This document shows positions 45,085 to 55,587 of a stretch of DNA of 62,568 bases, one piece after another. The DNA comes from Candidatus Krumholzibacteriota bacterium (lineage in GTDB: Bacteria > Krumholzibacteriota > Krumholzibacteriia > JACNKJ01): assembly GCA_016933175.1 (NCBI GenBank), contig JAFGBK010000084.1, forward strand, positions 1-62,568, given 5' to 3'. Made by a program: the position numbers and the translations under genes. Under the pieces are notes generated by a model. It saw only the letters and a program-made list of their open reading frames with translations. It was not told the origin of the DNA and did not search any database. The number at the start of each line of letters is the position of its first letter. Position 1 is the stretch's first letter.

Positions 45085-45153
45085 ATGGCAGGCGAAGACG
45101 GCATCGACGACCTGGTCCGGCGGGTCGATCATCTCAAGGAGTGTCTACGCTAG
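45085..45153 (+). pseudogene. prfB: Orphaned 5' end of prfB, left of the integrated element
   Basis: An ATG two bases after coaE opens 22 codons (MAGEDGIDDLVRRVDHLKEC, then Leu-Arg and TAG). It matches the N-terminus of RF2 up to the frameshift site: the AAGGAG, TGT and CT of the frameshift signal remain, but the sequence then switches to element DNA (ACGC TAG). The rest of prfB lies 9.4 kb away at 54517-55587. The peptide is unlikely to be functional. Confidence 0.85.
45124..45146 (+). repeat. attL (left junction of element)
   Basis: A 23-bp segment that matches 54492-54514 at 20 of 23 positions, with the last 11 bases (45136-45146, AAGGAGTGTCT) identical. It lies inside codons 14-21 of the original prfB and is the left integration junction. 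Confidence 0.85.
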
Positions 45154-45227
45154 GACAGCCGTGGCTGACGGTATTCCAACGGGTTACGCGGCTCTCTACA
45201 GGTGAAACCGGGCAGAATCGACTAGTT

Positions 45228-45248
45228 GTGGAGAGTATTTGGAGAGAA
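45228..45248 (+). repeat. Left end-repeat of the element
   Basis: A 21-bp direct repeat matching 54425-54445 at 18 positions. It contains two TGGAGAG units 11 bp apart (45229 and 45240), and a shorter TTGGAG follows at 45251. This spacing of one helical turn suggests arm-type sites for integrase or excisionase. Confidence 0.6.
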
Positions 45249-45256
45249 GTTTGGAG

Positions 45257-45309
45257 CCCCCTTACCCGACTCCGACGGGGGTAGGGGACAAGCCGGATCC
45301 CGATCCGGC
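45257..45309. repeat. Two consecutive hairpins near the element left end
   Basis: A hairpin with one bulge (CCCCCTTACCC at 45257-45267 with GGGGGTAGGGG at 45277-45287) is followed by a perfect 8-bp inverted repeat GCCGGATC/GATCCGGC at 45292-45309 with a two-base centre. They lie ahead of the first element gene. They may be a terminator shielding the element from coaE transcription or an operator. Confidence 0.45.
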
Positions 45310-45351
45310 CGGGGGCGACGTTTCCATCGGGAACCTCTGTCGGGAGGGGCT

Positions 45352-45912
45352 ATGGAAAGCTCACCAGCGAAGACCAGATCCGCGAAGTCGCCAGAAGCAT
45401 CGATAGACGGTTCCGACTGGTACAGACAGTTCCTTATCCGCCGCTTCAGACAGGCGCTTGACCGACGCGGGCAACTGCCATCTTCAAGGGAACTCAAGAA
45501 AGAGATCCTGAGAAAGAGAGACTCACTGAAAGCCGAAGCGGAGCCGACCTACCTCGACCTGGAAGAGATGAGTGGCGGCGACTTCGCACGAGATGATTCG
45601 GCGCTGCAGATCAAGCTACTTGAGACTCAACTCGCAATCTCAAATCGCATGGTCGATGAGTTGGAGGAGCTCGCAGGGGCTTGGGAATCTCGCCCTAGGC
45701 GAGGCCGTCCTCCGGAGACTGAGCGGGCTATCCTGATCCAATTGCTTGCCGCAGACTTTGAGGCTCGGTTCGGCGAGGCGAGCGCCTCCGGTGGATTCAA
45801 TCGGTACGTCAGGGAAGCCCTTAGTGAAGCAGGCGTCGAGTTGAGCAGTAGCGCAACAAGGCGCGCGATCGAAGCTGCATTGCCTCGATATTCAAAGGGT
45901 GTAGGAAACTAG
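45352..45912 (+). CDS. Element protein of unknown function
   Basis: A 186-residue protein with no family I recognise. It starts at ATG 45352 after CGGGAGGGG. It is charged and helical (QFLIRRFRQALDRRGQLPSS; SALQIKLLETQLAISNRMVD with heptad-like Leu/Ile spacing, a possible short coiled coil) and has a basic proline-containing hinge (PRRGRPPETERA), like AT-hook cores. This could be DNA binding. Its codon use is less GC-rich than the host genes. It is the first gene of the element. Confidence 0.6.
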   Translation: MESSPAKTRSAKSPEASIDGSDWYRQFLIRRFRQALDRRGQLPSSRELKKEILRKRDSLKAEAEPTYLDLEEMSGGDFARDDSALQIKLLETQLAISNRMVDELEELAGAWESRPRRGRPPETERAILIQLLAADFEARFGEASASGGFNRYVREALSEAGVELSSSATRRAIEAALPRYSKGVGN

Positions 45913-46017
45913 CCCGCCTTACGCCGTCTACGCGACCAATTGTTAGCGTAGTTCCGCTCCAGTAACGCGTTGCACCGTACGGCTTGTGAACGCAAGCTAG
46001 GCCGTAGGAGGTGTCGC

Positions 46018-46218
46018 GTGAACTCCATCCGAAAAGCCCGCATCCTTCGCGGGTATCACCAGTACGAACTCGCAGCGAATGCACGTCTCTCGCCGTCGCT
46101 CCTCTCACAATTCGAGACGGATCGGTGCAATCCCCGTCAAGACGAGCTCGTCCGCATCGCCGAGGCGCTCGGCGTCGAAGTCGCATCGCTCACGGGCGGC
46201 GAGGCGTCGCGTGGATAG
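46018..46218 (+). CDS. XRE-family helix-turn-helix regulator
   Basis: A 66-residue Cro/CI-type protein: KARILRGYHQYELAANARLS then PSLLSQFETDRCNPRQDELV and RIAEALGVEVASL, a complete HTH_3 domain. The start GTG 46018 has TAGGAGG upstream. It probably regulates the element lysis/excision-like decision, since it overlaps the excisionase-like gene by eight bases (same transcript). Confidence 0.85.
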   Translation: MNSIRKARILRGYHQYELAANARLSPSLLSQFETDRCNPRQDELVRIAEALGVEVASLTGGEASRG

Positions 46219-46468
46219 CCACACCTTCGATGCGCTGCTCGAGGAGATCGCCGCGCGCGTGGCGGAGAAGATCAAACTCCCCCCGGCCGAGCCGCAAGGG
46301 CTGCTCGATACCGACGGCGTCGCCCGGTTCCTGAAGGTATCCCGTGAGACGGTGACGCGAACGCTAGTTCGCCGCCACGGACTTCCGCATACCCGGATCG
46401 GCAGGGAGTTTCGCTTCGACCCGGATGCGGTGATGGCGTGGGCGCGGGCGAGGGGGCGCGTGCTATGA
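46211..46468 (+). CDS. Excisionase-family (MerR-like) DNA-binding protein
   Basis: An 85-residue protein. The C-terminal half is a winged helix of the excisionase/AlpA type: LLDTDGVARFLKVSRETVTR, then HGLPHTRIGREFRFDPDAVMAWA (motif: LP-x-x-RIG-x-x-(x)RF). It probably directs excision with the integrase at the right end. It starts with GTG 46211 overlapping the XRE stop and overlaps the next gene by ATGA. Confidence 0.8.
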   Translation: MDSHTFDALLEEIAARVAEKIKLPPAEPQGLLDTDGVARFLKVSRETVTRTLVRRHGLPHTRIGREFRFDPDAVMAWARARGRVL

Positions 46469-46638
46469 GCGCGCCGGACCTCGTAACCGTCAACGCAATC
46501 TGCGGCGACGGCGGACGCGCCGACATCGAGCGCGAGGGCGGCCTGCCTGCCCTGTACGTGGGCGACGGTGCTGAGCGCGCAGACTGGCGCTTCCGCCGCC
46601 GGGCGCTGTTGGACTGGGCGAAGGAGCGGGAGCAGTGA
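46465..46638 (+). CDS. Small degenerate excisionase-like winged-helix protein
   Basis: A 57-residue protein with the tail GGLPALYVGDG, followed by RADWRFRRRALLDWAKERE. This matches the second half of the excisionase fold (GLPA-x-x-VG ... WRFRR-x-x-LLDW) seen in the gene before it. It overlaps its neighbours on both sides (ATGA), and may act as a partner or anti-factor. Family assignment is by pattern only. Confidence 0.5.
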   Translation: MSAPDLVTVNAICGDGGRADIEREGGLPALYVGDGAERADWRFRRRALLDWAKEREQ

Positions 46639-47321
46639 ACGCGGGCTGGGTTCCTCTCTGGCGCGATGACGTGAGGCTGGCGGGCATCCTCAAGAATCAC
46701 CTGGCCGCCGCCCTCTACGTCCAACTGCTGGTAGAGGCCACGCACGAGCCCCGCACCGTGATGTTCGGCGAGCACGCGGTCCAGCTCGAAGCGGGCGAGG
46801 TTGTCACCTGCCGCCGCCAACTCGCCGAGGACCTGGGCACCACGGACCGCCGCATCCGAACCGCGATTACCGTCCTCGAAACCGTCCAGCTAACGACCAG
46901 CAGAACGACCAACGGATACACGGTCTTTACCCTTGCCAACTACGGAGTTAACGGAGGTGGCGACCAGCGGGGCGACCAGCGGTCCGTCACCAAAGCGACC
47001 AGCGGGCGACCAACGGGCGACCAGCCCTCAAATTATAGAAGAACAGAAGAACTTAAGAAAGAAGGGCGCGCGCCTGGGCGCGGCGACCCTGACGGGCCGC
47101 GCCCGCCGCGCGAGAAGACGGGCGCCGAGGCCGACGCACTGCAGGAGCGCCGAGCGCGTGAGGCTGCACGGCGCGGCAAGGGCGGCCTGCAGCTGGTGGG
47201 AGATGGAGCTCCACGAATCGCATCAGGTGCAGCCCGCATCACTGAGCTGGTGGGCGAGGGTCTGAGCTGGCCCGAGGCCATCGAGCAGGAGAAGCAGGAG
47301 CGAGAGGCGGCGACACAGTGA
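46635..47321 (+). CDS. Phage-type replisome organiser / replication initiation-like protein
   Basis: A 228-residue protein. The N-terminus WVPLWRDDVRLAGILKNHLA, EAGEVVTCRRQLAEDLGTTD and RRIRTAITVLE is the winged-helix of phage replication proteins (the O-like or DnaD-like organisers, with the typical LxTTNxYTVFTLANY ending). The middle is Gly/Asp/Gln-rich and the tail charged. It would recruit host replication to an origin. An ATG that overlaps the previous stop places it in the control operon. No helicase-loader gene was seen. Confidence 0.72.
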   Translation: MNAGWVPLWRDDVRLAGILKNHLAAALYVQLLVEATHEPRTVMFGEHAVQLEAGEVVTCRRQLAEDLGTTDRRIRTAITVLETVQLTTSRTTNGYTVFTLANYGVNGGGDQRGDQRSVTKATSGRPTGDQPSNYRRTEELKKEGRAPGRGDPDGPRPPREKTGAEADALQERRAREAARRGKGGLQLVGDGAPRIASGAARITELVGEGLSWPEAIEQEKQEREAATQ

Positions 47322-47363
47322 GTATGCGAGCGGCAAGCAGGGCCATCATCCTTGATACGGGCT

Positions 47364-47379
47364 GATAAGGGCCATTATC
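47364..47379. repeat. Near-palindrome downstream of the replication gene
   Basis: GATAAGGGCCATTATC: five-base arms around a GGCC core with one mismatch pair. Direct copies GGGCCATCAT (47340-47349) and GGGCCATTAT (47369-47378) overlap it. It sits 42 bases past the replication-like gene and may be a binding site or part of an origin. Confidence 0.35.
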
Positions 47380-47411
47380 GGAACGAAGTACAAGTCTGGG
47401 TACTGGACGGA

Positions 47412-47433
47412 GAGGGCACGAGAAACGGCCCTC
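47412..47433 (+). repeat. Stem-loop before the 47450 gene
   Basis: GAGGGC (47412-47417), a 10-base loop, GCCCTC (47428-47433). It ends eight bases before the AGGAGG of the next gene; could terminate upstream transcription or influence translation. Confidence 0.35.
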
Positions 47434-47449
47434 GCCCAAGGAGGTTAGC

Positions 47450-48643
47450 GTGTCTCGAACGAAAACGGCGGTCCGTACGCGCCGCCCGACGGCGACCCCG
47501 GAAGCTGAAAGCGCTCCGGCCGCACCTGAAGACCCGCTCGACGAGCTCGAACTCCCGACGGCGGTCGAACTCTTCGGCGCGTGGCTTCCCGGCTGGCTCG
47601 CGACTCCGCTCGCGGTAGTCGAGGTCCGTATCGTGCCAGGGGAGCGCCTCGAGAAGGCGGCGACTCCGGTCGAACCCGTCGACCCGCTCTCGAGGTCGAT
47701 CTACCAAAGCGTATCGGGCCGCGACGAGCGTTTCGCCCGTCGGGAGCGGTACTACGCCGACCTCGACAGCCGGAAGAAGATCGTCTCCTTCGACTTCGCC
47801 CGCGAACTTGCTCGCGGTGTCGCAGCGGCCGTCGAGAAGTCCCGCGTCGAAGTCTTGACGCGCTGGCGACGGCTCTACGACGACCGGGGGGTCGGGGCAG
47901 TCCCGAACTTCGTCAAGTGGAAGGCGCGGTGCATCCGGCTCGCGGAACTGACGGAAGGCAAGCCCTCGATCGAAGTCCTCTCGGGCGAGATCCGACTGCC
48001 TACGCCCGGACCCGAGCCGGAGCGCTTCAAGGATCCGGGCCTCTTCGTCGAGAAGATCTTCGACGACCTCGCTTCCACGGCGGCGATCTGCGAGAAGATC
48101 CGCGCGTACCGATTCTTCGAGACCGTTCCTGAGCCGTTCCCGATTCCGGCCGCGCTCGCGGCGAGGGTTTCTGATACTGAGAAGGCGATCCGCGAGGAGT
48201 ACGCCCAGGCGCGATTCCTCCTCGAGCAGATCCCGCAACGCAGGGAGTTCGATCAGATCCTCGACCTCGCGGAGATCCCTGCAGGACGTGTCCGTGATCC
48301 GCAAGCGGTCGAGGATGCATTCCTCGACTTCTGTTTCGACGCGTGGGAGCGCGCGAAGAAGTGCGGTCCCTGTCTACTCGCGGAATTGACGGCGGACGAG
48401 CCGCATCCCTTGCCGTGGATCGAAAAAAACGGCACGTGGGCTGAAGATCTCGTTCCGCTCCTTCGAACCAGATCGAAAGGCCGCCTGGAGTGCTTGATTC
48501 GGAAGGACGGGGAGCGCCTTGAGGCCCTGGCGGACGACGAGAGCGGGAAGGCCGACGAGCGGCAACGCCGCTTCGCGGAGAAGGTAGCGATCGAGGAACG
48601 TATCAAGAAGAACGAGCGAAAGCTCGCAGGCCTGGAGGCGTAA
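47450..48643 (+). CDS. Element protein of unknown function (397 residues)
   Basis: I do not recognise this family. It begins at GTG 47450 after AAGGAGGTT. The first 40 residues are Thr/Ala/Pro-rich and probably disordered. The body is helical and charged, with several acidic-aromatic segments (AVEDAFLDFCFDAWERAKKC) and a C-terminal coiled-coil-like run (RFAEKVAIEERIKKNERKLA). It shares an operon with the next two genes (3-base spacing), so the three may work together. No membrane or signal segment. Confidence 0.65.
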   Translation: MSRTKTAVRTRRPTATPEAESAPAAPEDPLDELELPTAVELFGAWLPGWLATPLAVVEVRIVPGERLEKAATPVEPVDPLSRSIYQSVSGRDERFARRERYYADLDSRKKIVSFDFARELARGVAAAVEKSRVEVLTRWRRLYDDRGVGAVPNFVKWKARCIRLAELTEGKPSIEVLSGEIRLPTPGPEPERFKDPGLFVEKIFDDLASTAAICEKIRAYRFFETVPEPFPIPAALAARVSDTEKAIREEYAQARFLLEQIPQRREFDQILDLAEIPAGRVRDPQAVEDAFLDFCFDAWERAKKCGPCLLAELTADEPHPLPWIEKNGTWAEDLVPLLRTRSKGRLECLIRKDGERLEALADDESGKADERQRRFAEKVAIEERIKKNERKLAGLEA

Positions 48644-48646
48644 ACG

Positions 48647-49135
48647 ATGGAACTGAAAGAAGAGAGCACCTTCGACGCGGTCGCCGCGAAGATCGCCGTA
48701 GTCCTTGAAGAACTCAAGGAACTGCGTACCGTCCACCTCGGCAAGGAGACGTATTTTCGACAGTACGTCGGCGAGGCCGAACGCTATATCCGGCCGCTCG
48801 CCGATCCGGAGGTCAAACGCCACCTCACCGGGCAGGAGATCAAGGACCTCGGCACGAAGCTCGGCGAAGTGATGGCCAAGATCGCCGGTGACGCCGACCT
48901 CGAGAGCCAGCTTGACGCGGCGTATACCGCGCGACTCAAGAAGCTGGAGACGCTCTACCCCGAAGCGGCGGCGGCGGCCGAGTACGGCGCGAGCCCGGAG
49001 GTTGCCGCTCAGTGGACCGAGCCGATCGGCGACGCCTTCCGGGAGGAACACCGGCGGCTTCTCGCGGAGACGAAGCGCCTCGGCGTCGAGACGGTTACTG
49101 TCGCCCCGAATGATCTGTCGGAGCTTCGCGGATAG
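48647..49135 (+). CDS. Element protein of unknown function (162 residues)
   Basis: A mostly helical soluble protein (EELKELRTVHLGKETYFRQY; DLGTKLGEVMAKIAGDADLE) with no recognised domain. It follows the 397-residue protein by three bases and precedes a zinc-binding-like gene by three, so it is translated from the same transcript. Confidence 0.6.
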   Translation: MELKEESTFDAVAAKIAVVLEELKELRTVHLGKETYFRQYVGEAERYIRPLADPEVKRHLTGQEIKDLGTKLGEVMAKIAGDADLESQLDAAYTARLKKLETLYPEAAAAAEYGASPEVAAQWTEPIGDAFREEHRRLLAETKRLGVETVTVAPNDLSELRG

Positions 49136-49138
49136 GCA

Positions 49139-49666
49139 ATGCCGCGCCTGTGTAAAGCGATCAACAAGAACGGGCAGCCTTGCAAGGCCAAGGCGATCCG
49201 GGGGAGTGACTATTGCGTCTTCCACGATCCTGACCGAGCGGCGGCGATTGCAGCGGGACGACTGAAGGGGTCGGCAACGGCGCTTATCCCGCGAGTTCGA
49301 CGACAGGGAATCCCGCTCCGGACGCCGACGCAGATCCTCGACGCCTGCGAGGACGCGCTCGAGATCGCCCGCACCGACGGCCTGACGCCGGACAAGTATC
49401 TCTTCATCACCGTGCAGATCCTCCGCGTCGCGCTGGACGCCCAGCGACTCCAGTACGCGATCGGCGAGACGCCCGTACAGGACGAACGGCTCGCCCTTCT
49501 CGACGCGATCATCGAAGCGGCGGATCCGGAGCCGGAGCCTGAACCGGAGGCCGAAGTCGGCGGCGAGGAGACGGTCTATCTCGAGGATCTTCCCGAAGAA
49601 CGGCGGATTCTTGTCGAGGGTTGGCTCCAGGAGGCCCGCGAGAGGTGTGTAGATGCCCCTAGTTAG
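49139..49666 (+). CDS. Element protein with N-terminal Cys/His (zinc-knuckle-like) motif
   Basis: A 175-residue protein. Residues 1-35 carry LCKAINKNGQPCKAKAIRG and DYCVFHDPD, a C-x9-C...C-x2-H arrangement that is common in small phage and mobile-element proteins (DUF5763 or HGGxSTG-like). The remainder is helical, and the C-terminal part is acidic (PEPEPEPEAE). Function unknown; in some phages such a protein is encoded near the small terminase, but no large terminase is present here. Confidence 0.6.
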   Translation: MPRLCKAINKNGQPCKAKAIRGSDYCVFHDPDRAAAIAAGRLKGSATALIPRVRRQGIPLRTPTQILDACEDALEIARTDGLTPDKYLFITVQILRVALDAQRLQYAIGETPVQDERLALLDAIIEAADPEPEPEPEAEVGGEETVYLEDLPEERRILVEGWLQEARERCVDAPS

Positions 49667-49698
49667 AGAGATCGGCGGCGGAGTGGGCCCCAGGTCCG

Positions 49699-49742
49699 TC
49701 CAGGGCCGCTCGGGCCCCCACGGGCGCAGGAGAGGCCCTGGA
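49699..49742. terminator. Large hairpin between the unknown-gene operon and the recombinase
   Basis: Perfect 9-bp arms TCCAGGGCC (49699-49707) and GGCCCTGGA (49734-49742) enclose a 26-base region with further GGGCC/GGGC pairing potential. It lies in the 169-base gap after the 49666 stop and before the recombinase promoter, which fits a terminator or structured leader. Confidence 0.45.
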
Positions 49743-49789
49743 GCGAGGTCACGATCTAGGCCCTCGGGGTCTTTACAGCAGGTCGACGC

Positions 49790-49818
49790 TTGACGGCAAG
49801 CCGCCATTGTGGCCTAAT
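49790..49818 (+). promoter_or_regulatory. Promoter of the 49836 recombinase
   Basis: TTGACG (49790-49795), a 17-bp spacer and CCTAAT (49813-49818); alternatively TAATGC at 49815-49820 with a 19-bp spacer. An SD-like GGGAGGGGAGG lies between it and the start. Confidence 0.45.
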
Positions 49819-49835
49819 GCGGCGGGAGGGGAGGT

Positions 49836-50807
49836 GTGATGGAAACCGACCTGATTACACATAACGCTCAATATCGGCCTCTCGCCGCGACCAAGCAGGA
49901 GATCCTCGAGGAATGGCTCGCCGGGCGGAGCGAGAACACCCGGCGGACCTACCGGGCGGCGTGGGAGCACTTCGCCCGGTGGCTCGGGGAACTGGATCTC
50001 GACGCCGCTTCGGCGTGGCTTCTCTCCGTTCCCTTCAACGAGGGGAACGCGATCCTCTACAAGTACAAGCTCGCGATGCGGGAGGAGCGGACGCGCCAGG
50101 GCAAGCCGCTCGCGCCGGGGACGATCAACGTCCGGTTGACGGCGATACGCTCGCTCGTCCGGCTCTCCCGGTCGCTTGGCCTGACGCCCTGGGCTCCCGA
50201 GGTACCCGGAGAGAAGGTCGAGTGCGACGATAGCCGGTTGCTCGGCCCGGAACTCGCCGTCGTCCAGGCGATCCTGTCGGGCCTCAAGAGTCTTACCGAT
50301 CCGAAAGGCCGCCGCGACTACGCAATCGTCCGCTTGCTGGCGGACCTCGGTCTTCGCCGCGACTCTGTCATCGGGCTGGACCTAGAGAACATCGACCTCG
50401 GCGCGGGTACACTCCGGACCCGCCTCAAGGGCCGCTCGGGCCTCCACACGTTCTCCCTGCCGCCGGAGACGGCCGAGGCGCTCGAGGCGTGGCTTCTCGA
50501 GCGTGGCCCTGCCGACGGTCCAGCGTTCCCGCACCTCTCGCGTTCGCATCCGCCGGGGAGGCTTACCGGCCGTGGACTGGCGAAGATCATCGAGGTGCGA
50601 AGCCTCCAGTTCGCCGGGGTTCGGGTCCGGCCACACGGTCTTCGTCACGCGTTCGCGACTCGAGCCCGCGATCTCGGCATCCCGATCGACGAAGTCGCGG
50701 TCGCGATGCGGCACTCGAACCTCGCGACGGTCCAGCGCTACGACGACGCACGCCGCAATCGAGACGAGAAGGTCGGCCGCAAGGTCGCTGCAAGCTACGG
50801 AGTGTGA
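49836..50807 (+). CDS. XerC/D-like tyrosine recombinase of the element
   Basis: A 323-residue phage-integrase family recombinase. The N-terminal SAM-like core-binding domain runs from EEWLAGRSENTRRTYRAAWE. The catalytic domain has Arg in LGLRRDSVIGL, the HxxR in RPHGLRHAFATRARD, the second His in MRHSNLATVQ and the nucleophile Tyr in VQRYDDARR. It lacks the arm-binding N-terminus present in the integrase at the right end. Possible roles are resolution of element multimers, a second integration system or a passenger recombinase. The RHH gene follows after two bases. Confidence 0.88.
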   Translation: MMETDLITHNAQYRPLAATKQEILEEWLAGRSENTRRTYRAAWEHFARWLGELDLDAASAWLLSVPFNEGNAILYKYKLAMREERTRQGKPLAPGTINVRLTAIRSLVRLSRSLGLTPWAPEVPGEKVECDDSRLLGPELAVVQAILSGLKSLTDPKGRRDYAIVRLLADLGLRRDSVIGLDLENIDLGAGTLRTRLKGRSGLHTFSLPPETAEALEAWLLERGPADGPAFPHLSRSHPPGRLTGRGLAKIIEVRSLQFAGVRVRPHGLRHAFATRARDLGIPIDEVAVAMRHSNLATVQRYDDARRNRDEKVGRKVAASYGV

Positions 50808-50809
50808 CG

Positions 50810-51031
50810 ATGGCGGATCTCCCGAAGACGAAGCGAACGATCTGGCTCCCCGGCGATCTGTCTCAGCTTGTTCGAGCCGTCGCGTACCTCGAGAATCGCT
50901 CGCAAAGCGACGTGATCGTCGAGGCGCTTCAAGGCTTTATCGAGGGAAAGCAGAAGGAGCACGGACGTGAACTCGAAACGGTTATCCGTGCATCGCAAAA
51001 GGTAGCGCGAGGAAAGCTGCCCAAGGCTTAG
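50810..51031 (+). CDS. Ribbon-helix-helix-like small protein
   Basis: A 73-residue protein: TKRTIWLPGDLSQLVRAVAY then NRSQSDVIVEALQGFIEGKQ, a likely RHH (CopG/Arc-type) fold with an initial strand and two helices. Such proteins are DNA-binding regulators or antitoxins. It follows the recombinase by two bases and precedes the nuclease-like gene by 19 bases, so it may regulate the cargo. Confidence 0.65.
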   Translation: MADLPKTKRTIWLPGDLSQLVRAVAYLENRSQSDVIVEALQGFIEGKQKEHGRELETVIRASQKVARGKLPKA

Positions 51032-51050
51032 TGCGGAATCGAGGTAGTGG

Positions 51051-52238
51051 ATGAGGAAGCCAACGATCTCTAGCCTCTTAAAAGAGAGTGCCGGTCTCAT
51101 GCGGCGGCAATTTGAGGGTATTAGAGAAACGATTCCGCACGGAGGCACCAAGGGAGTGGCTGTGGAACGAGTGCTTCGGAAGTTTCTGAATGATCAGATG
51201 CCCAAGCGCTTCAAGTCTACGCAGGGGTTCATCATCGACTCCAACAACAGCCTGAGTCCTCAGACCGATGTTATCGTGTATGACGCCTTTTCGGGTGTGG
51301 TCTACCGGGCATCGGAGGATGCAGACATAGTGCCGGCCGATGCGGTTGCTGCAGTTGTCGAAGTGAAGAGTGTGTTGAAAAAGGATGCGCTCCGAGACGC
51401 ATATAAAAAACTGTCAGCCTGCAAGCAACTGCGCAAGGCTCCAGGGTCGGGAATGGATCAGCAGGCTACTGGTAGCCCTCTGTCTTCGACTGCTACGTTC
51501 GGTGCTGTGTTCGCTTTCAGTTCCGATGCTAGCCTCAAGACACTAGCGGATAGCGTAGAGGAACTGAATCTAGAGTACGACTCACTGCTTTGGCCTGATC
51601 TCATTGTGGTCCTTGACAAGGGTGTGCTTGAATATGGCGTGGAGTTCTTTAGCGGCAGCGGAATGAAGGGAAGGATGAACCCGCCTATTGATCGCGACTT
51701 CACAATACCTCCATGGTTCGTTCGGCTAGCGATACTGGAGGCGGGTGATTTCACACTCAACCACTTCTTCTACCGCTTGATGGCACACGTCGTCTTCTAT
51801 CCATACCGACCGGCACTTTTGCCCGAGGCAGCACGGGAAGGCGTCCCAAATGAAAGTGAGATCCGAGCATCATATCAGTACAACTTGCAGCGCCAGCTGG
51901 TCCCAACGCCTACGGAGTGGTTTAAAGAGAACAAGCCTCGCCCGGCTGCATTGTTTTTAGTAAAGCATCGGGGTCAACAAGTGGGCTACCTAGAATACTA
52001 CTTGTGGCAGGATGGGGCTGTGGTCTCTCTACTAGGGGATCCATCACTCTCGAAGCTTCTAGGGCAAGTTCTTGCTGACCCGCAAGCCCAAGTGTTTCGT
52101 CCTCCAGGAGATCTGCGACAGATGACATCTTTGCTTCGGCTCAGCATCGATAAGTTTAGGGCGTGGAAGCCCGTTCTGGAAAAGAAAACACCCTTCACAT
52201 TTACCGAGGTTACACCACAAGACATTCAGAACCTTTAG
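51051..52238 (+). CDS. DUF6602-like putative PD-(D/E)XK nuclease
   Basis: A 395-residue protein. The N-terminal half fits a restriction-endonuclease-like fold: HGGTKGVAVERVLRKFLND, FKSTQGFIIDSNN, then QTDVIVYDAFSG (the catalytic Asp) and AVAAVVEVKSVLKKD (the E-x-K pair). The layout matches DUF6602, a family often found in defence islands. The C-terminal half, about 200 residues, is unassigned. Its DNA is clearly lower in GC than both flanks. As cargo between two recombinases it is a candidate anti-phage or plasmid-defence gene; no activity can be shown from sequence. Confidence 0.6.
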   Translation: MRKPTISSLLKESAGLMRRQFEGIRETIPHGGTKGVAVERVLRKFLNDQMPKRFKSTQGFIIDSNNSLSPQTDVIVYDAFSGVVYRASEDADIVPADAVAAVVEVKSVLKKDALRDAYKKLSACKQLRKAPGSGMDQQATGSPLSSTATFGAVFAFSSDASLKTLADSVEELNLEYDSLLWPDLIVVLDKGVLEYGVEFFSGSGMKGRMNPPIDRDFTIPPWFVRLAILEAGDFTLNHFFYRLMAHVVFYPYRPALLPEAAREGVPNESEIRASYQYNLQRQLVPTPTEWFKENKPRPAALFLVKHRGQQVGYLEYYLWQDGAVVSLLGDPSLSKLLGQVLADPQAQVFRPPGDLRQMTSLLRLSIDKFRAWKPVLEKKTPFTFTEVTPQDIQNL

Positions 52239-52389
52239 GGAGGCCCGCCAGCGTAGGTTGAGACTAGTAGCCATAGGACGCTGTTACTTACTTGTCTGTG
52301 AACCTAACCGTGGGGCCGATAATTGGGATTAACGGAAGCTACAGAAGCGGGTGTTCGCCAGTGTACAGCGGCCAGGGGAGGCGATCTGA

Positions 52390-52866
52390 ATGAAGTACGC
52401 GCTTGGTTTTCTTGGTCTGTTGGCCGGGAAGATCATCGGTGAGATCGTCTTCGATTCGAGGCTCCTTGGCTGGATTCTTGGTATTCTCTTGGGCATCGCC
52501 GCCTACTGGGCCCCGGCATTCTTGAAGTACCGTAAAAGCTCTCCTCATCAGTTCCTCTCGTTTCACGGGCCGAACTCTCCGATTACGCGTTCCAAGTCCC
52601 GAGGGCAGCTTCGGACCGCCATAGCGCAGCTTGCAGAGGGCGGACTGTTGGTTGATTTCGATCCCCATTCTAAGGAAGCCACTGCAGACGCGACGCAGTG
52701 GACGGCTCTTTCAGGGCGCGAGAAGCTCACGCTATGCCAGATCCTGGCGCAGGCAATTCGAGTTGAAGGACTGGATCCAGGAGAGCTAGCGCTTGTGGAC
52801 CGAGAAGAAAATACGCTCGCACTCTATTCCTGTGCGGATGATGTGTTCAGGTCGGCGTCAGAGTAA
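52390..52866 (+). CDS. Small membrane-anchored protein of unknown function
   Basis: A 158-residue protein with two N-terminal membrane helices (ALGFLGLLAGKIIGEIVF and LLGWILGILLGIAAYWAPAF), followed by a soluble domain of about 110 residues (GQLRTAIAQLAEGGLLVDFD; REKLTLCQILAQAIRVEGLD). No family recognised. The 151-base gap upstream shows no obvious hairpin. Low-GC codon use marks it as part of the cargo. Confidence 0.6.
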   Translation: MKYALGFLGLLAGKIIGEIVFDSRLLGWILGILLGIAAYWAPAFLKYRKSSPHQFLSFHGPNSPITRSKSRGQLRTAIAQLAEGGLLVDFDPHSKEATADATQWTALSGREKLTLCQILAQAIRVEGLDPGELALVDREENTLALYSCADDVFRSASE

Positions 52867-52890
52867 CTGTGTACAATAGCAGGTAACAAC

Positions 52891-53187
52891 GTGCTGCAAA
52901 GGATTACGATTATTTCGATCTTCGTTCTCGTGAGCCTTTGGGAATACTGCATGTACTTCTACCGTTTGGGGGCACTTCCCTATGCGTTTGGTTACAATGC
53001 GTTCTCAGCATTTCAGTGGATCATCATAGGCGTTGCTCTCGTTAAAATGTTCGGGTGGATCTTCGGGCTGCTCGGACTTGGAATCTGTATATTTGTACTT
53101 CAGTACGTTACGCATTTTACGCTGGGCTTGTTTACAACGCTGTGTTTAAAGCGGATCCGCGCCCAGCCTTGGCCTTGTTTGGTGTGA
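52891..53187 (+). CDS. Small multi-helix membrane protein, possibly frameshifted
   Basis: A 98-residue protein with about three hydrophobic helices (RITIISIFVLVSLWEYCMYF; AFQWIIIGVALVKMFGWIFG; LLGLGICIFVLQYVTHF). Its C-terminus (LKRIRAQPWPCLV) looks unnatural, whereas another frame of the same DNA continues with a convincing membrane helix. No family recognised. Start GTG 52891. Confidence 0.5.
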   Translation: MLQRITIISIFVLVSLWEYCMYFYRLGALPYAFGYNAFSAFQWIIIGVALVKMFGWIFGLLGLGICIFVLQYVTHFTLGLFTTLCLKRIRAQPWPCLV

Positions 53188-53237
53188 TGGTCTGGGTAAC
53201 TGCTGGTTTGACGGTGGCGCTTCTGATCTTTGGGTGA
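53055..53237 (+). other. Overlapping frame encoding a further membrane helix (possible frameshifted 3' part)
   Basis: In the -1 frame relative to 52891-53187, bases 53114-53237 encode YAGLVYNAVFKADPRPALAL and a hydrophobic tail FGVMVWVTAGLTVALLIFG ending at TGA 53237. This may be the true continuation of the preceding gene after a frameshift near 53112-53125, or a separate overlapping gene starting at GTG 53055. Confidence 0.3.
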
Positions 53238-53270
53238 GGTAACGAATTTCTTCGAGAGGAGGAGCGATGA

Positions 53271-54401
53271 ATGGCTGTAATTCGCCGTAGAGGAAAGCGC
53301 GGCGACCGGTGGGTCGTCGATCTGCGGATCGACGGTCGCCGCGTGCAGAAGACCCTACCGAAGGGCACGACTCGCGCCGGAGCCGAGGAAGCCGAAATCC
53401 GCGCGACCAAGGCGGGCAGTATCGAGGCGGCGATCCCGAAGCGGTGCGTGACCTTCGGGTACTTCGCCGAACGTTGGCTCGAGGAACGCCGGAGCGAGAT
53501 CAAGACCTCCACCTACATCAACTACGAAGCGAGGCTCCGGCATTACTTCCGGGGATCCGACCTCTGGAACCTCCCGCTCGACTCCATCGGCGTCGGTGAA
53601 CTCAAGGGGTTCCGGACGAGGCTCCGCGCCAAGCACACCAACCTCAAGGTAGGAACGATCAACGATCTCCACTCGATCCTCGGCGCGATCTTCGCCGATG
53701 CGGAGCGGGAGGGGGCGATCGTTCGCAATCCGTCTCGGTTGATGCGGCGGCTCAAGGAACGAGCCGAGGAGAAGCGAGGGCCGGTGTTCCTCGATCAAAC
53801 CGAAGCCGACCGATTGCTCGAGGCGTCGAAATCGGAAGGGCTCGCCTTCTACGCGATGGTATTCCTGTCCCTCCGGACAGGAATCCGGCGCGGCGAGATG
53901 CTCGCCCTCCGGTGGAAGGACGTCGACCTCGAGGCGGGAAGGCTCCGTGTCGAACGATCCTATCGCGCGAACAATCCCGAAGGCGAACGGTTCGGCTCGC
54001 CGAAATCGGAGAACTCCCGGCGGGAGGTGCCCTTGACCCCGGATACCGTCGCCGTTCTCCAGGAGCATCGGGCCGAGCAGATCGCGCGAGCCAGGGAGAC
54101 CCGGCGGCTTCCGGTCCTCGTCTTCGATCGTGGGGACGGGCGGCCGGTCGCCGAGTCGAACTTCTCGCGACGCAACGCCTGGGGGCGAGTCCTCGAACGG
54201 TCGAGGATCGGCAAGCCGCTCCGGTGGCACGATCTTCGGCACAGCTTCGCGAGTCTTTTGATCGCGAACCGGGTCCCCTTGGAGTACATTACGGAGCTCC
54301 TGGGGCATTACTCCATCACGATCACCAAGGACGTCTACGGGCATCTGGCTCCGAAGTGGAAAGCGGATGCGGTGGCGGTACTTGACGGGATCGGAAGCTG
54401 A
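53271..54401 (+). CDS. int: Element integrase, tyrosine recombinase with arm-binding domain
   Basis: A 376-residue phage-integrase family protein next to attR. The N-terminal Arm-DNA-binding-like strand domain (RRGKRGDRWVVDLRIDGRRV) is followed by the SAM-like domain (YFAERWLEERRSEIKTSTYI). The catalytic residues are Arg (RTGIRRGEMLALRW), Lys-containing beta-hairpin (SPKSENSRREVPL), HxxR (RWHDLRHSFASLL), the second His (ELLGHYSITIT) and Tyr (KDVYGHL). It is the best candidate for integration at prfB. Start ATG 53271 follows GAGGAGGAG. Its 3' end holds the -35 of the promoter reading into prfB. Confidence 0.93.
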   Translation: MAVIRRRGKRGDRWVVDLRIDGRRVQKTLPKGTTRAGAEEAEIRATKAGSIEAAIPKRCVTFGYFAERWLEERRSEIKTSTYINYEARLRHYFRGSDLWNLPLDSIGVGELKGFRTRLRAKHTNLKVGTINDLHSILGAIFADAEREGAIVRNPSRLMRRLKERAEEKRGPVFLDQTEADRLLEASKSEGLAFYAMVFLSLRTGIRRGEMLALRWKDVDLEAGRLRVERSYRANNPEGERFGSPKSENSRREVPLTPDTVAVLQEHRAEQIARARETRRLPVLVFDRGDGRPVAESNFSRRNAWGRVLERSRIGKPLRWHDLRHSFASLLIANRVPLEYITELLGHYSITITKDVYGHLAPKWKADAVAVLDGIGS

Positions 54402-54412
54402 GCGATACTGTC
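54383..54412 (+). promoter_or_regulatory. Outward promoter at the element right end, reading into prfB
   Basis: TTGACG (54383-54388) lies inside the integrase 3' end. A TACTGT (54407-54412, 18-bp spacer) or GATACT (54405-54410, 16-bp) -10 follows. It would transcribe the rebuilt prfB, whose ATG is at 54453 with TTGGAGAG upstream. Confidence 0.5.
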
Positions 54413-54424
54413 CGGCGATCCACG

Positions 54425-54445
54425 GTGGAGAGAGATTGGAGAGAA
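54425..54445 (+). repeat. Right end-repeat of the element
   Basis: Partner of 45228-45248 (18 of 21 identical): two TGGAGAG units 11 bp apart (54426 and 54437). The second unit doubles as the Shine-Dalgarno of the rebuilt prfB. Confidence 0.6.
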
Positions 54446-54452
54446 AAAAGCG

Positions 54453-55587
54453 ATGACGGAAAATCAAGAGATTGCCGCGCTTGAAGTTAGAGTCGCTCAC
54501 CTGAAGGAGTGTCTTTGACTACCCGCGCCTGAAGCGGGACCTGGCCCGGCTGGAGTCGGCCATGGCCGCCCCGGGGTTCTGGGACGACGCCGAGGCCGCC
54601 CGACGCACCCTCGCCGAATCCACACGCCTGAAGCGCTGGATCGAACCCCTGGAAGCCCTGGCCGGGGAGGTGGGGGACCTCGCCGAGCTCGCCGAGCTGG
54701 CGGCCGGCGAGGACGACGCGGAGTCGGCCGGCGAGATGGCGGCCGAGCTCGCGCGCCTCGGCGAGCGGCTGGACGACTACGAGCTGCTGCTGATGTTCAA
54801 GGGCGAGGACGACGACCGCAACGCGATCCTCACCATCCATCCCGGGGCCGGCGGCACCGAGAGCGCCGACTGGGCGGAGATGCTCTGGCGCATGATGCAG
54901 CGCTACATCGAGCGGCGCGGGTGGGAGGTCTCGGTCCTCGACCTGCAGCGGGGCGAGGAGGCCGGCATCAAGTCCGTCACGGCCGAGGTGAAGGGGGACT
55001 TCGCCTACGGCCGGCTGCGGGCCGAGCGCGGCGTGCACCGGCTGGTGCGCATCAGCCCCTTCGATCAGGCCAAGCGGCGACACACCTCCTTCGCCTCGGT
55101 CTTCGTCTACCCCGAGGTCAAGGACGCCGGCGAGATCGAGCTGGACGAGTCGGAGATCAGGATGGAGACCTTCCGCGCCAGCGGGGCCGGCGGCCAGCAC
55201 GTCAACAAGACCAGCAGCGCCGTGCGCCTGATCCACGTGCCGACGGGGCTCATCGCCACCTGCCAGGACGAGCGCAGCCAGCACCGCAACAAGGAGGTGG
55301 CCATGAAGATCCTCCTGGCCAAGCTCTACCAGAAGCGGCGCGAGGAGGAGGAGAAGGCCCGGCGCGCCCTGGAGGACAGCAAGACCGAGATCGGCTGGGG
55401 CAACCAGATCCGCAGCTACGTCTTCCATCCCTACCAGCTGGTCAAGGACCACCGCACCAACGTGGAGACGGGCAACCTGCAGGCCGTCATGGACGGCGAC
55501 CTGGACCGCTTCGTCGAGGCCTGGCTCAAGCGCGAGGCGGGCATGGCGGTCAGCGGCGAGGCCGGCGTGAAGGGGAAGCGGGCGTGA
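54453..55587 (+). CDS. prfB: Peptide chain release factor 2, rebuilt by the element, with programmed +1 frameshift
   Basis: Terminates translation at UGA and UAA. The product is read from 54453-54515, slips +1 past TGA 54516, and continues 54517-55587: 377 residues. The first 21 codons (MTENQEIAALEVRVAHLKEC, then Leu) are element DNA; from DYPRLKRDLARLE on, the sequence is chromosomal. It contains the RF2 codon-recognition SPF (RISPFDQAK) and the catalytic GGQ (GAGGQHVNKTSS). Length and architecture are normal. The AUG has TTGGAGAG upstream. Without the frameshift only a 21-residue peptide is made, so RF2 autoregulation by UGA readthrough competition remains possible. Confidence 0.93.
54492..54514 (+). 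repeat. attR (right junction of element)
   Basis: A 23-bp partner of attL 45124-45146 (three mismatches, all in the first 12 bases). The identical core AAGGAGTGTCT is 54504-54514 and ends two bases before the UGA of the frameshift site. Confidence 0.85.
54504..54519 (+). promoter_or_regulatory. RF2 programmed +1 frameshift signal
   Basis: AAGGAG, TGT, CTT, TGA, C matches the arrangement of the E. coli prfB signal (AGGGGG, TAT, CTT, TGA, C): an internal Shine-Dalgarno three bases before CTT, then the slippery CTT and a UGA with a following C. It is exactly on the att core. Confidence 0.9.

What the first reader, a model, noticed from the sequence alone, without database searches (positions are those of the whole stretch)
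45085..54519. Integrative element inserted exactly at the programmed frameshift signal of release factor 2
The chromosome reads coaE-ATG-22 codons of prfB, then 9.4 kb of foreign DNA, then a rebuilt prfB start and the complete prfB body. Both junctions carry AAGGAGTGTCT (45136-45146; 54504-54514), which is the internal Shine-Dalgarno plus the first bases of the TGT-CTT-TGA frameshift cassette. An integrase gene abuts the right junction. A highly conserved RNA-level recoding signal of an essential gene is thus used as an attB. SXT/R391 elements in prfC (RF3) are the known analogy. I do not know a described family at the RF2 frameshift site, so novelty needs a literature check.
Basis: partly seen in the sequence, partly recalled or inferred. 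Interest (0 to 1): 0.95.

Follow-up and report, generated by a model that had tools for sequence, protein, structure and literature searches.

The report
Mobile element in RF2 frameshift signal
In an uncultured bacterium, a 9.4-kb DNA element splits the gene for release factor 2 at the exact spot where ribosomes are expected to slip to read it, and carries a replacement start for that gene; it was likely inserted by its own integrase, whose nearest relatives in the same bacterial family sit beside tRNA genes instead, which would mean that such an element moved from tRNA genes to the slippage signal of a protein gene.

Summary
A 9,368-bp segment (45136-54503) interrupts prfB exactly at the RF2 frameshift cassette: AAGGAGTGTCT stands at both ends, the displaced 5' end follows coaE on the left, and a complete prfB with a new start (ATG 54453) stands on the right. 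Among 71 RF2 loci from the 80 genomes searched in the phylum, this is the only one seen interrupted; coaE lies directly upstream in 62. Added here: (1) both ends carry the tandem pair TGGAGAGNNNNTGGAGAG, the predicted arm sites of the integrase; (2) the integrase falls in a supported clade (SH-aLRT 100) with the five best-matching integrases of the phylum, all beside tRNA genes and all with an 11-bp-spaced pair at the end of int; the three whose far end could be reached have 45-47-bp repeats from the anticodon loop to the tRNA 3' end; (3) those five have a predicted hairpin before the tRNA where this element has an RBS, start codon and RF2 N-terminus. Best reading: a lineage of tRNA-anticodon integrases moved to the RF2 recoding signal. 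Mobility and direction of the switch are not shown. Seven full-text searches aimed at prfB as a target listed no such case. New variant of a known kind.

The parts
45085..45153 (+). displaced 5' end of host prfB, now a 22-codon frame ending in TAG
   Evidence: translation MAGEDGIDDLVRRVDHLKECLR-stop, directly behind coaE
45136..45146 (+). attL core AAGGAGTGTCT
45229..45246 (+). predicted left arm-type pair TGGAGAGTATTTGGAGAG, 82 bp inside the core
45352..45912 (+). 186-aa protein, no family found
46018..46218 (+). Cro/CI-type HTH regulator
   Evidence: PF01381 1.1e-11
46211..46468 (+). excisionase-like HTH_17 protein
   Evidence: TIGR01764 37.9 bits, cut-off 28.8; phrog_66 1.3e-8
46635..47321 (+). 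DnaD-like helicase loader
   Evidence: phrog_2514 2.5e-15
47450..48643 (+). 397-aa orphan protein
   Evidence: only itself
48647..49135 (+). 162-aa protein, no family above cut-off
49139..49666 (+). 175-aa protein with a zinc-finger-like HGGxSTG start
   Evidence: below cut-off: NF041373 1.1e-4, PF19067 4.9e-5
49839..50807 (+). second tyrosine recombinase (Xer-like), role unknown
   Evidence: PF00589 1.1e-18
50810..51031 (+). Arc/CopG-like small protein
   Evidence: phrog_6506 5.3e-4, weak
51051..52238 (+). NucC-like PD-(D/E)XK nuclease, DUF6602; likely cargo
   Evidence: PF20247 1.3e-23; PADLOC NucC effector 5e-27; 6uxf NucC 2.2e-15 over residues 7-130
52390..52866 (+). 158-aa protein, no family found
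52891..53187 (+). 98-aa hydrophobic protein, no family above cut-off
53271..54401 (+). tyrosine integrase with all catalytic residues (R206, K245, H320, R323, H346, Y356)
   Evidence: PF00589 6.5e-25; these residues invariant in 14 sequences
54382..54409 (+). promoter-like TTGACG-16-GATACT, predicted to serve the rebuilt prfB
   Evidence: 1 found, 0.2 expected
54426..54443 (+). predicted right arm-type pair TGGAGAGAGATTGGAGAG; its second half is also the likely RBS of the rebuilt prfB
54453..54514 (+). element-borne 5' end of prfB, ATG to the core
   Evidence: 11 of 21 residues as in the host's own N-terminus
54504..54514 (+). attR core AAGGAGTGTCT
54504..54519 (+). rebuilt RF2 frameshift cassette AAGGAG-TGT-CTT-TGA-C
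54562..55587 (+). RF2 body (from an internal ATG)
   Evidence: TIGR00020 477.6 bits

Best explanation
A 9,368-bp integrative element lies inside prfB between two copies of the AAGGAGTGTCT of its frameshift signal and was likely put there by its own tyrosine integrase, which probably descends from integrases that target tRNA genes. Shown: direct repeat, displaced 5' fragment, complete prfB on the int side, uninterrupted locus in relatives, matching tandem pairs at both ends, int with its catalytic residues, an excisionase-like gene, kin integrases beside tRNA genes. Inferred: Int binds the pairs (arms) and the core, and strand exchange within the 11 bp joins the element's own ATG-RBS-N-terminus to the host TGA and RF2 body, so that RF2, frameshift included, would still be made, now from an element-borne start and predicted promoter instead of the coaE-prfB transcript. 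Excision would put the host's own 5' end back. The change of target would have exchanged the hairpin that kin integrases carry before a tRNA 3' end for a prfB start.
For: Repeat and junctions. Empty sites: cassette in 69 of 71 phylum loci, coaE directly upstream in 62. Arms: exact TGGAGAGNNNNTGGAGAG occurs twice in the 3.45-Mb genome, once at each end, 82 and 60 bp from the cores. Kin: the five best matches of the integrase in the 80 phylum genomes besides itself lie 42-77 bp (stop codon to tRNA 3' end) from Val, Met, Arg, Val and Lys tRNA genes, and all carry an 11-bp-spaced pair at the 3' end of int (8/8, 7/8, 8/8, 8/8, 8/8). tRNA-Met kin: 45-bp repeat, 5,928 bp, the pair repeated at the far end. 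tRNA-Val and tRNA-Arg kin: 47- and 45-bp repeats. In all three the repeat begins within 1 nt of the anticodon loop. Tree: window Int with the five kin and nine proteins of unknown context, SH-aLRT 100. Hairpin before the tRNA in the predicted folds of 5 of 5 kin, none of that kind in the window.
Against: No read, PCR or circle evidence. At up to one mismatch the arm pattern has 2 matches in the genome and its reversed control also 2 in all, so it is exactness and place that count. The far-end arm pair was found in 1 of 3 mapped kin. The tree is a quick one, the window Int is a long branch (1.09), identity to kin is 31-36%, nine clade members have no known context, and the direction of the target change is not tested. 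Whole-stretch folding of one kin, L236, is no better than shuffles (z -0.19; window z -0.40), and a stricter stem script found hairpins in only 2 of 5. Of six further, weaker relatives four have no tRNA at the int 3' end. The right-hand promoter is a consensus match only.
Confidence: 0.88

Rival explanations
1. Same integrative element, but the integrase did not come from tRNA-targeting ancestors; protein-gene targets are old in this clade and tRNA sites are a separate branch.
For: The five tRNA kin form their own branch (support 96) and the window Int hangs unresolved beside nine proteins of unknown context.
Against: All clade members with a known context, other than this one, lie at tRNA genes; of 80 more distant viral integrase loci 15 have a tRNA within 500 bp, 13 with its 3' end facing int, and none has RF2.
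Confidence: 0.3
2. A fossil: the element integrated long ago and can no longer leave; the rebuilt prfB start is kept by selection on RF2 alone.
For: No circle or empty-site contig: the host 5' core context occurs once in the assembly.
Against: Int frame, catalytic residues, excisionase-like gene and exact cores are intact; the displaced 62-bp end is still recognisable.
Confidence: 0.4
3. Assembly chimera between coaE and prfB.
For: The genome is a fragmented assembly of 144 contigs; GC changes at both joins.
Against: A chimera would not give a displaced prfB 5' end, a second in-frame prfB 5' end of the same 21-codon length, identical 11-bp cores and the same tandem pair at both ends.
Confidence: 0.03

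Closest known systems
SXT/R391 ICEs in prfC (RF3); passages of PMC4489591, and PMC8138268
   Same: Tyrosine integrase; target is the 5' end of a release-factor gene; DNA-borne attachment site inside a protein gene.
   Different: Other gene (prfB), site is an RNA recoding signal, 9.4 kb, no conjugation genes found in 14 proteins.
dusA-specific islands; section 18 and passages of PMC4482086
   Same: The island replaces the 5' end of the target with its own sequence, coding part and putative promoter.
   Different: dusA is a tRNA-modification gene without a frameshift; the dusA integrase family holds over 200 genomes (abstract), this one is a single case.
SpyCI in the 5' end of mutL; abstract of PMC3430984
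   Same: Element without virion genes at a 5' end; a promoter inside int can drive the target.
   Different: There integration silences the gene; here the gene is rebuilt with an RBS and start.
Genomic islands at the anticodon of tRNA genes (type A of Islander); passages of PMC4383910
   Same: attP carries a piece of the target, the gene is restored on the int side, a displaced fragment marks the far end; integrase kin have exactly this.
   Different: Target is a protein gene, the restored part is its 5' end and not a 3' end, and the gene runs in the same direction as int.

Membership tests
tyrosine-integrase genomic island that restores its target gene | integrase with catalytic R-K-HxxR-H-Y | tested here: met
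tyrosine-integrase genomic island that restores its target gene | direct repeat at both ends, displaced fragment and restored target | tested here: met
tyrosine-integrase genomic island that restores its target gene | uninterrupted site in relatives | tested here: met
tyrosine-integrase genomic island that restores its target gene | excised circle and empty site in the same strain | not testable with these tools
   no reads; one copy of the left core context in the assembly
SXT/R391 ICE | site at the 5' end of prfC | tested here: not met
   the interrupted gene is prfB
SXT/R391 ICE | conjugation genes | tested here: not met
   none among the families listed for 14 proteins
prophage or phage satellite | capsid, portal or large terminase genes | tested here: not met
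   none listed; only weak small-terminase matches, 0.0032 and 0.012
tRNA-anticodon island clade of the same bacterial family | integrase within the clade | tested here: met
   15-row clade, SH-aLRT 100, long branch
tRNA-anticodon island clade of the same bacterial family | 11-bp-spaced tandem pair at the 3' end of int | tested here: met
   6 of 6; in the five kin it overlaps the last codons or stop of int, in the window it starts 25 bp after the stop
tRNA-anticodon island clade of the same bacterial family | tRNA gene as target | tested here: not met
   target is prfB

The most novel reading that the evidence does not exclude
A recoding signal in an mRNA gene serves as attB because, as DNA, it resembles an anticodon arm: a hyperconserved 17-bp imperfect dyad (TCAAG-GAGTGTC-TTTGA) whose 7-bp centre lies wholly inside the 11-bp identity. 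An integrase lineage of tRNA anticodon loops switched to it, swapped its terminator hairpin for a prfB start, and now holds the start, promoter and half of the autoregulatory signal of an essential gene. Recoding signals would then be a second class of RNA-defined integration sites beside tRNA and tmRNA genes.
Probability: 0.4. Interest if true: 0.8.

Novelty: new variant of a known kind. Interest (0 to 1): 0.64.

Why it matters
Integrases prefer sites that cannot drift; tRNA genes are the classic case. The RF2 frameshift motif is nearly invariant for a different reason: ribosomes must slip there (a 2025 survey found the premature stop in 8,164 of 12,753 genomes and calls its elements hyper-conserved; PMC12421855, section 5). 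If such a signal is an attB, conservation at the RNA level can be exploited outside tRNA genes, and the integrated element sits between the cell and its RF2. The kin elements at tRNA genes make a target switch testable by comparing closely built att sites: same arms, same hairpin place, different core.

Tried and rejected
Other cases at prfB: none seen in 71 phylum RF2 loci (9 of 80 genomes gave no RF2 match at 1e-90), in the 80 best of 264 named RF2 loci (no integrase match at 1e-4; control; 70 of the 80 hold over 2 kb upstream), or in E. coli, where 5,375 of 5,426 genomes match and all 5,375 hold at least 80% of a 601-bp stretch across the site (the other 51 had no match). The cassette pattern in viral contigs gave one chance match in a phage gene. 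Arm-plus-core patterns gave 0 in genome contigs and 0 in viral contigs; both are specific to this element's arms and would miss other integrases. Of the 80 best of 513 viral integrase loci none had RF2; 19 of them end within 150 bp of int.

An 11-bp pair at the end of int is not peculiar to this clade: 31 of 70 viral integrases reach 7/8 at spacing 11 against 3-15 of 70 at spacings 8-10 and 12-15, and 147 of 2,000 random host stretches. So the pair supports the arm reading, not kinship.

Dyad: the 17-mer pairs 6 of 8, reached by 773 of 52,551 host 17-mers, or 4 of 5 in anticodon-arm geometry, reached by 1,754 of 52,551. Suggestive only.

A claim in my first notebook entry, that only this genome has two cassette-like words on one contig, is wrong: G001 contig C512 and single-contig genomes such as G015 also do; it is not used. 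That entry's stop position 45152 should read 45151-45153, and '37 of 38 relatives' there should read 38 of 38 genomes, own included.

Phage records with RF2 (122) look like host DNA for the most part, judged from the names; not followed.
Full report
What is there. The window is contig C87 of a 3.45-Mb, 144-contig, 92.9%-complete genome. polA-coaE-prfB-lysS is the backbone. At 45136 the prfB reading frame, 20 codons and two bases in, runs into 9,368 bp of lower-GC DNA (61.6% against 73.1 and 71.7%). At 54504 the same 11 bp return, followed by host TTGAC and the RF2 body. The left remnant reads to a TAG seven bases past the core; the right copy has its own ATG and 21 codons with the same ending HLKECL. 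Host and element 5' ends share 37 of 62 bases and 11 of 21 residues, so the element carries a homologous, not an arbitrary, RF2 N-terminus. The internal SD, its 3-nt spacing, the CTT and the TGAC are all intact, the first part from the element, the last from the host.

Empty sites. Of the 80 phylum genomes 71 gave an RF2 match at 1e-90. CTTTGA was found at the expected place in 69; two loci are cut by contig ends. coaE lies upstream on the same strand with 74-338 bp between the end of its match and the cassette in 62. Leaving out L138, where the cassette is cut, the 11-bp core is exact in 3 of 68 (this locus, G002, G008) and has one mismatch in 43. In L003 another, divergent gene lies upstream and the cassette is intact. 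No other locus was seen interrupted.

Attachment site anatomy. TGGAGAG occurs as a tandem pair with 11-bp spacing 82 bp inside the left core and 60 bp inside the right one, same orientation. In the whole genome the 18-bp pattern has two matches at up to one mismatch, both exact and both here; the reversed control has two as well, inexact or exact not shown. Such pairs are what arm-binding domains of tyrosine integrases use (established knowledge, recalled).

Kin. The integrase is isolated: the best of 840 matches among 7,996 scored candidates is 34% identical. Its five best matches in the phylum are in the same family, G001 and G002. Each has a tRNA gene 42-77 bp past its stop codon, 3' end towards int, and an 11-bp-spaced pair at the 3' end of int, with a different motif each time. 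For the three that are not cut by a contig end the displaced tRNA fragment was found: 45 bp for tRNA-Met (5.9-kb element), 47 bp for tRNA-Val about 22 kb away and 45 bp for tRNA-Arg about 39 kb away. All begin within a base of the anticodon loop. The tRNA-Met element repeats its pair at the far end, letter for letter in both 8-mers; for the other two no pair was seen near the far end. Of six weaker relatives, one lies beside tRNA-Met and one beside the displaced tRNA-Val fragment (coordinates); four have no tRNA at the int 3' end.

Tree. With 124 rows the window integrase, the five kin and nine proteins of unknown context form one group with SH-aLRT 100; the five kin group with 96; the order inside is not resolved and the window branch is long.

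Module exchange. The predicted folds of the int-to-tRNA stretches show a hairpin before the tRNA in 5 of 5 kin; the stretch before the core in the window has none of that kind (whole-stretch z-scores -3.71, -2.50, -2.72, -0.19, -8.40 against -0.40). The terminator scan also found none in 53100-54560. In its place the window has a promoter-like match (1 found, 0.2 expected), GGAGAG 11 nt before the ATG, and the RF2 N-terminus. A tRNA site is joined at the gene's 3' end, where a terminator would protect it; prfB is joined at its 5' end, where a start is needed. That is the mechanism I propose for the switch; its direction is inferred from the kin.

Cargo. Fourteen proteins were scanned. A Cro/CI-type regulator, an excisionase-like protein, a DnaD-like loader, a second recombinase and a NucC-like nuclease stand out. 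No conjugation or virion gene was listed. The element may copy itself after excision and may be moved by a helper; both are guesses.

Lineage. G025, same class as the window, has a 41,213-bp contig with RF2 at the place where named record JAICFA010000002.1, Candidatus Krumholzibacteriia, also 41,213 bp, has it. The window is thus probably from Krumholzibacteriota.

Literature. Seven asked for prfB or release factor 2 with integration terms: searches found no paper with all terms; some searches gave capped listings (25 of 68, 30 of 1,943, 20 of 42, 15 of 139, 15 of 474), in which no title or abstract start names such a case. The prfB survey PMC12421855 has no occurrence of integrase, mobile or insertion. 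Mageeney 2020, the likeliest list of target genes, is not held, and supplements could not be read. So 'undescribed' is what these searches allow, not a proof.

Noticed in passing
window 51051-52238: NucC-like nuclease without a visible cyclase or sensor partner in the element; its neighbours 52390-53187 have no family.
   Followed up: partly
window 49839-50807: A second, Xer-like tyrosine recombinase in the middle of the element; its best phylum relative is 39% identical in G029 C92, which shares no other element gene in the 19.9 kb read.
   Followed up: partly
L245, G001 C1044 near 134,000: The displaced tRNA-Val fragment is followed by a second, cut integrase gene: probably two elements in tandem at one tRNA.
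   Followed up: partly
L233-L237 between int and tRNA: The hairpins of the five kin share a loop-side motif like GCAAGTCRTTGC or AACTCATTG; meaning unknown.
   Followed up: no
window 47450-48643: 397-aa protein without any match in 7,985 scored candidates from 5.8 billion proteins.
   Followed up: partly
window 54426-54453: The right arm pair overlaps the likely RBS of the rebuilt prfB, so integrase binding could disturb RF2 expression during excision.
   Followed up: no
G001 C512:90924 and 92022: Two CTCAAGGAGTATCT words 1.1 kb apart, away from prfB.
   Followed up: no
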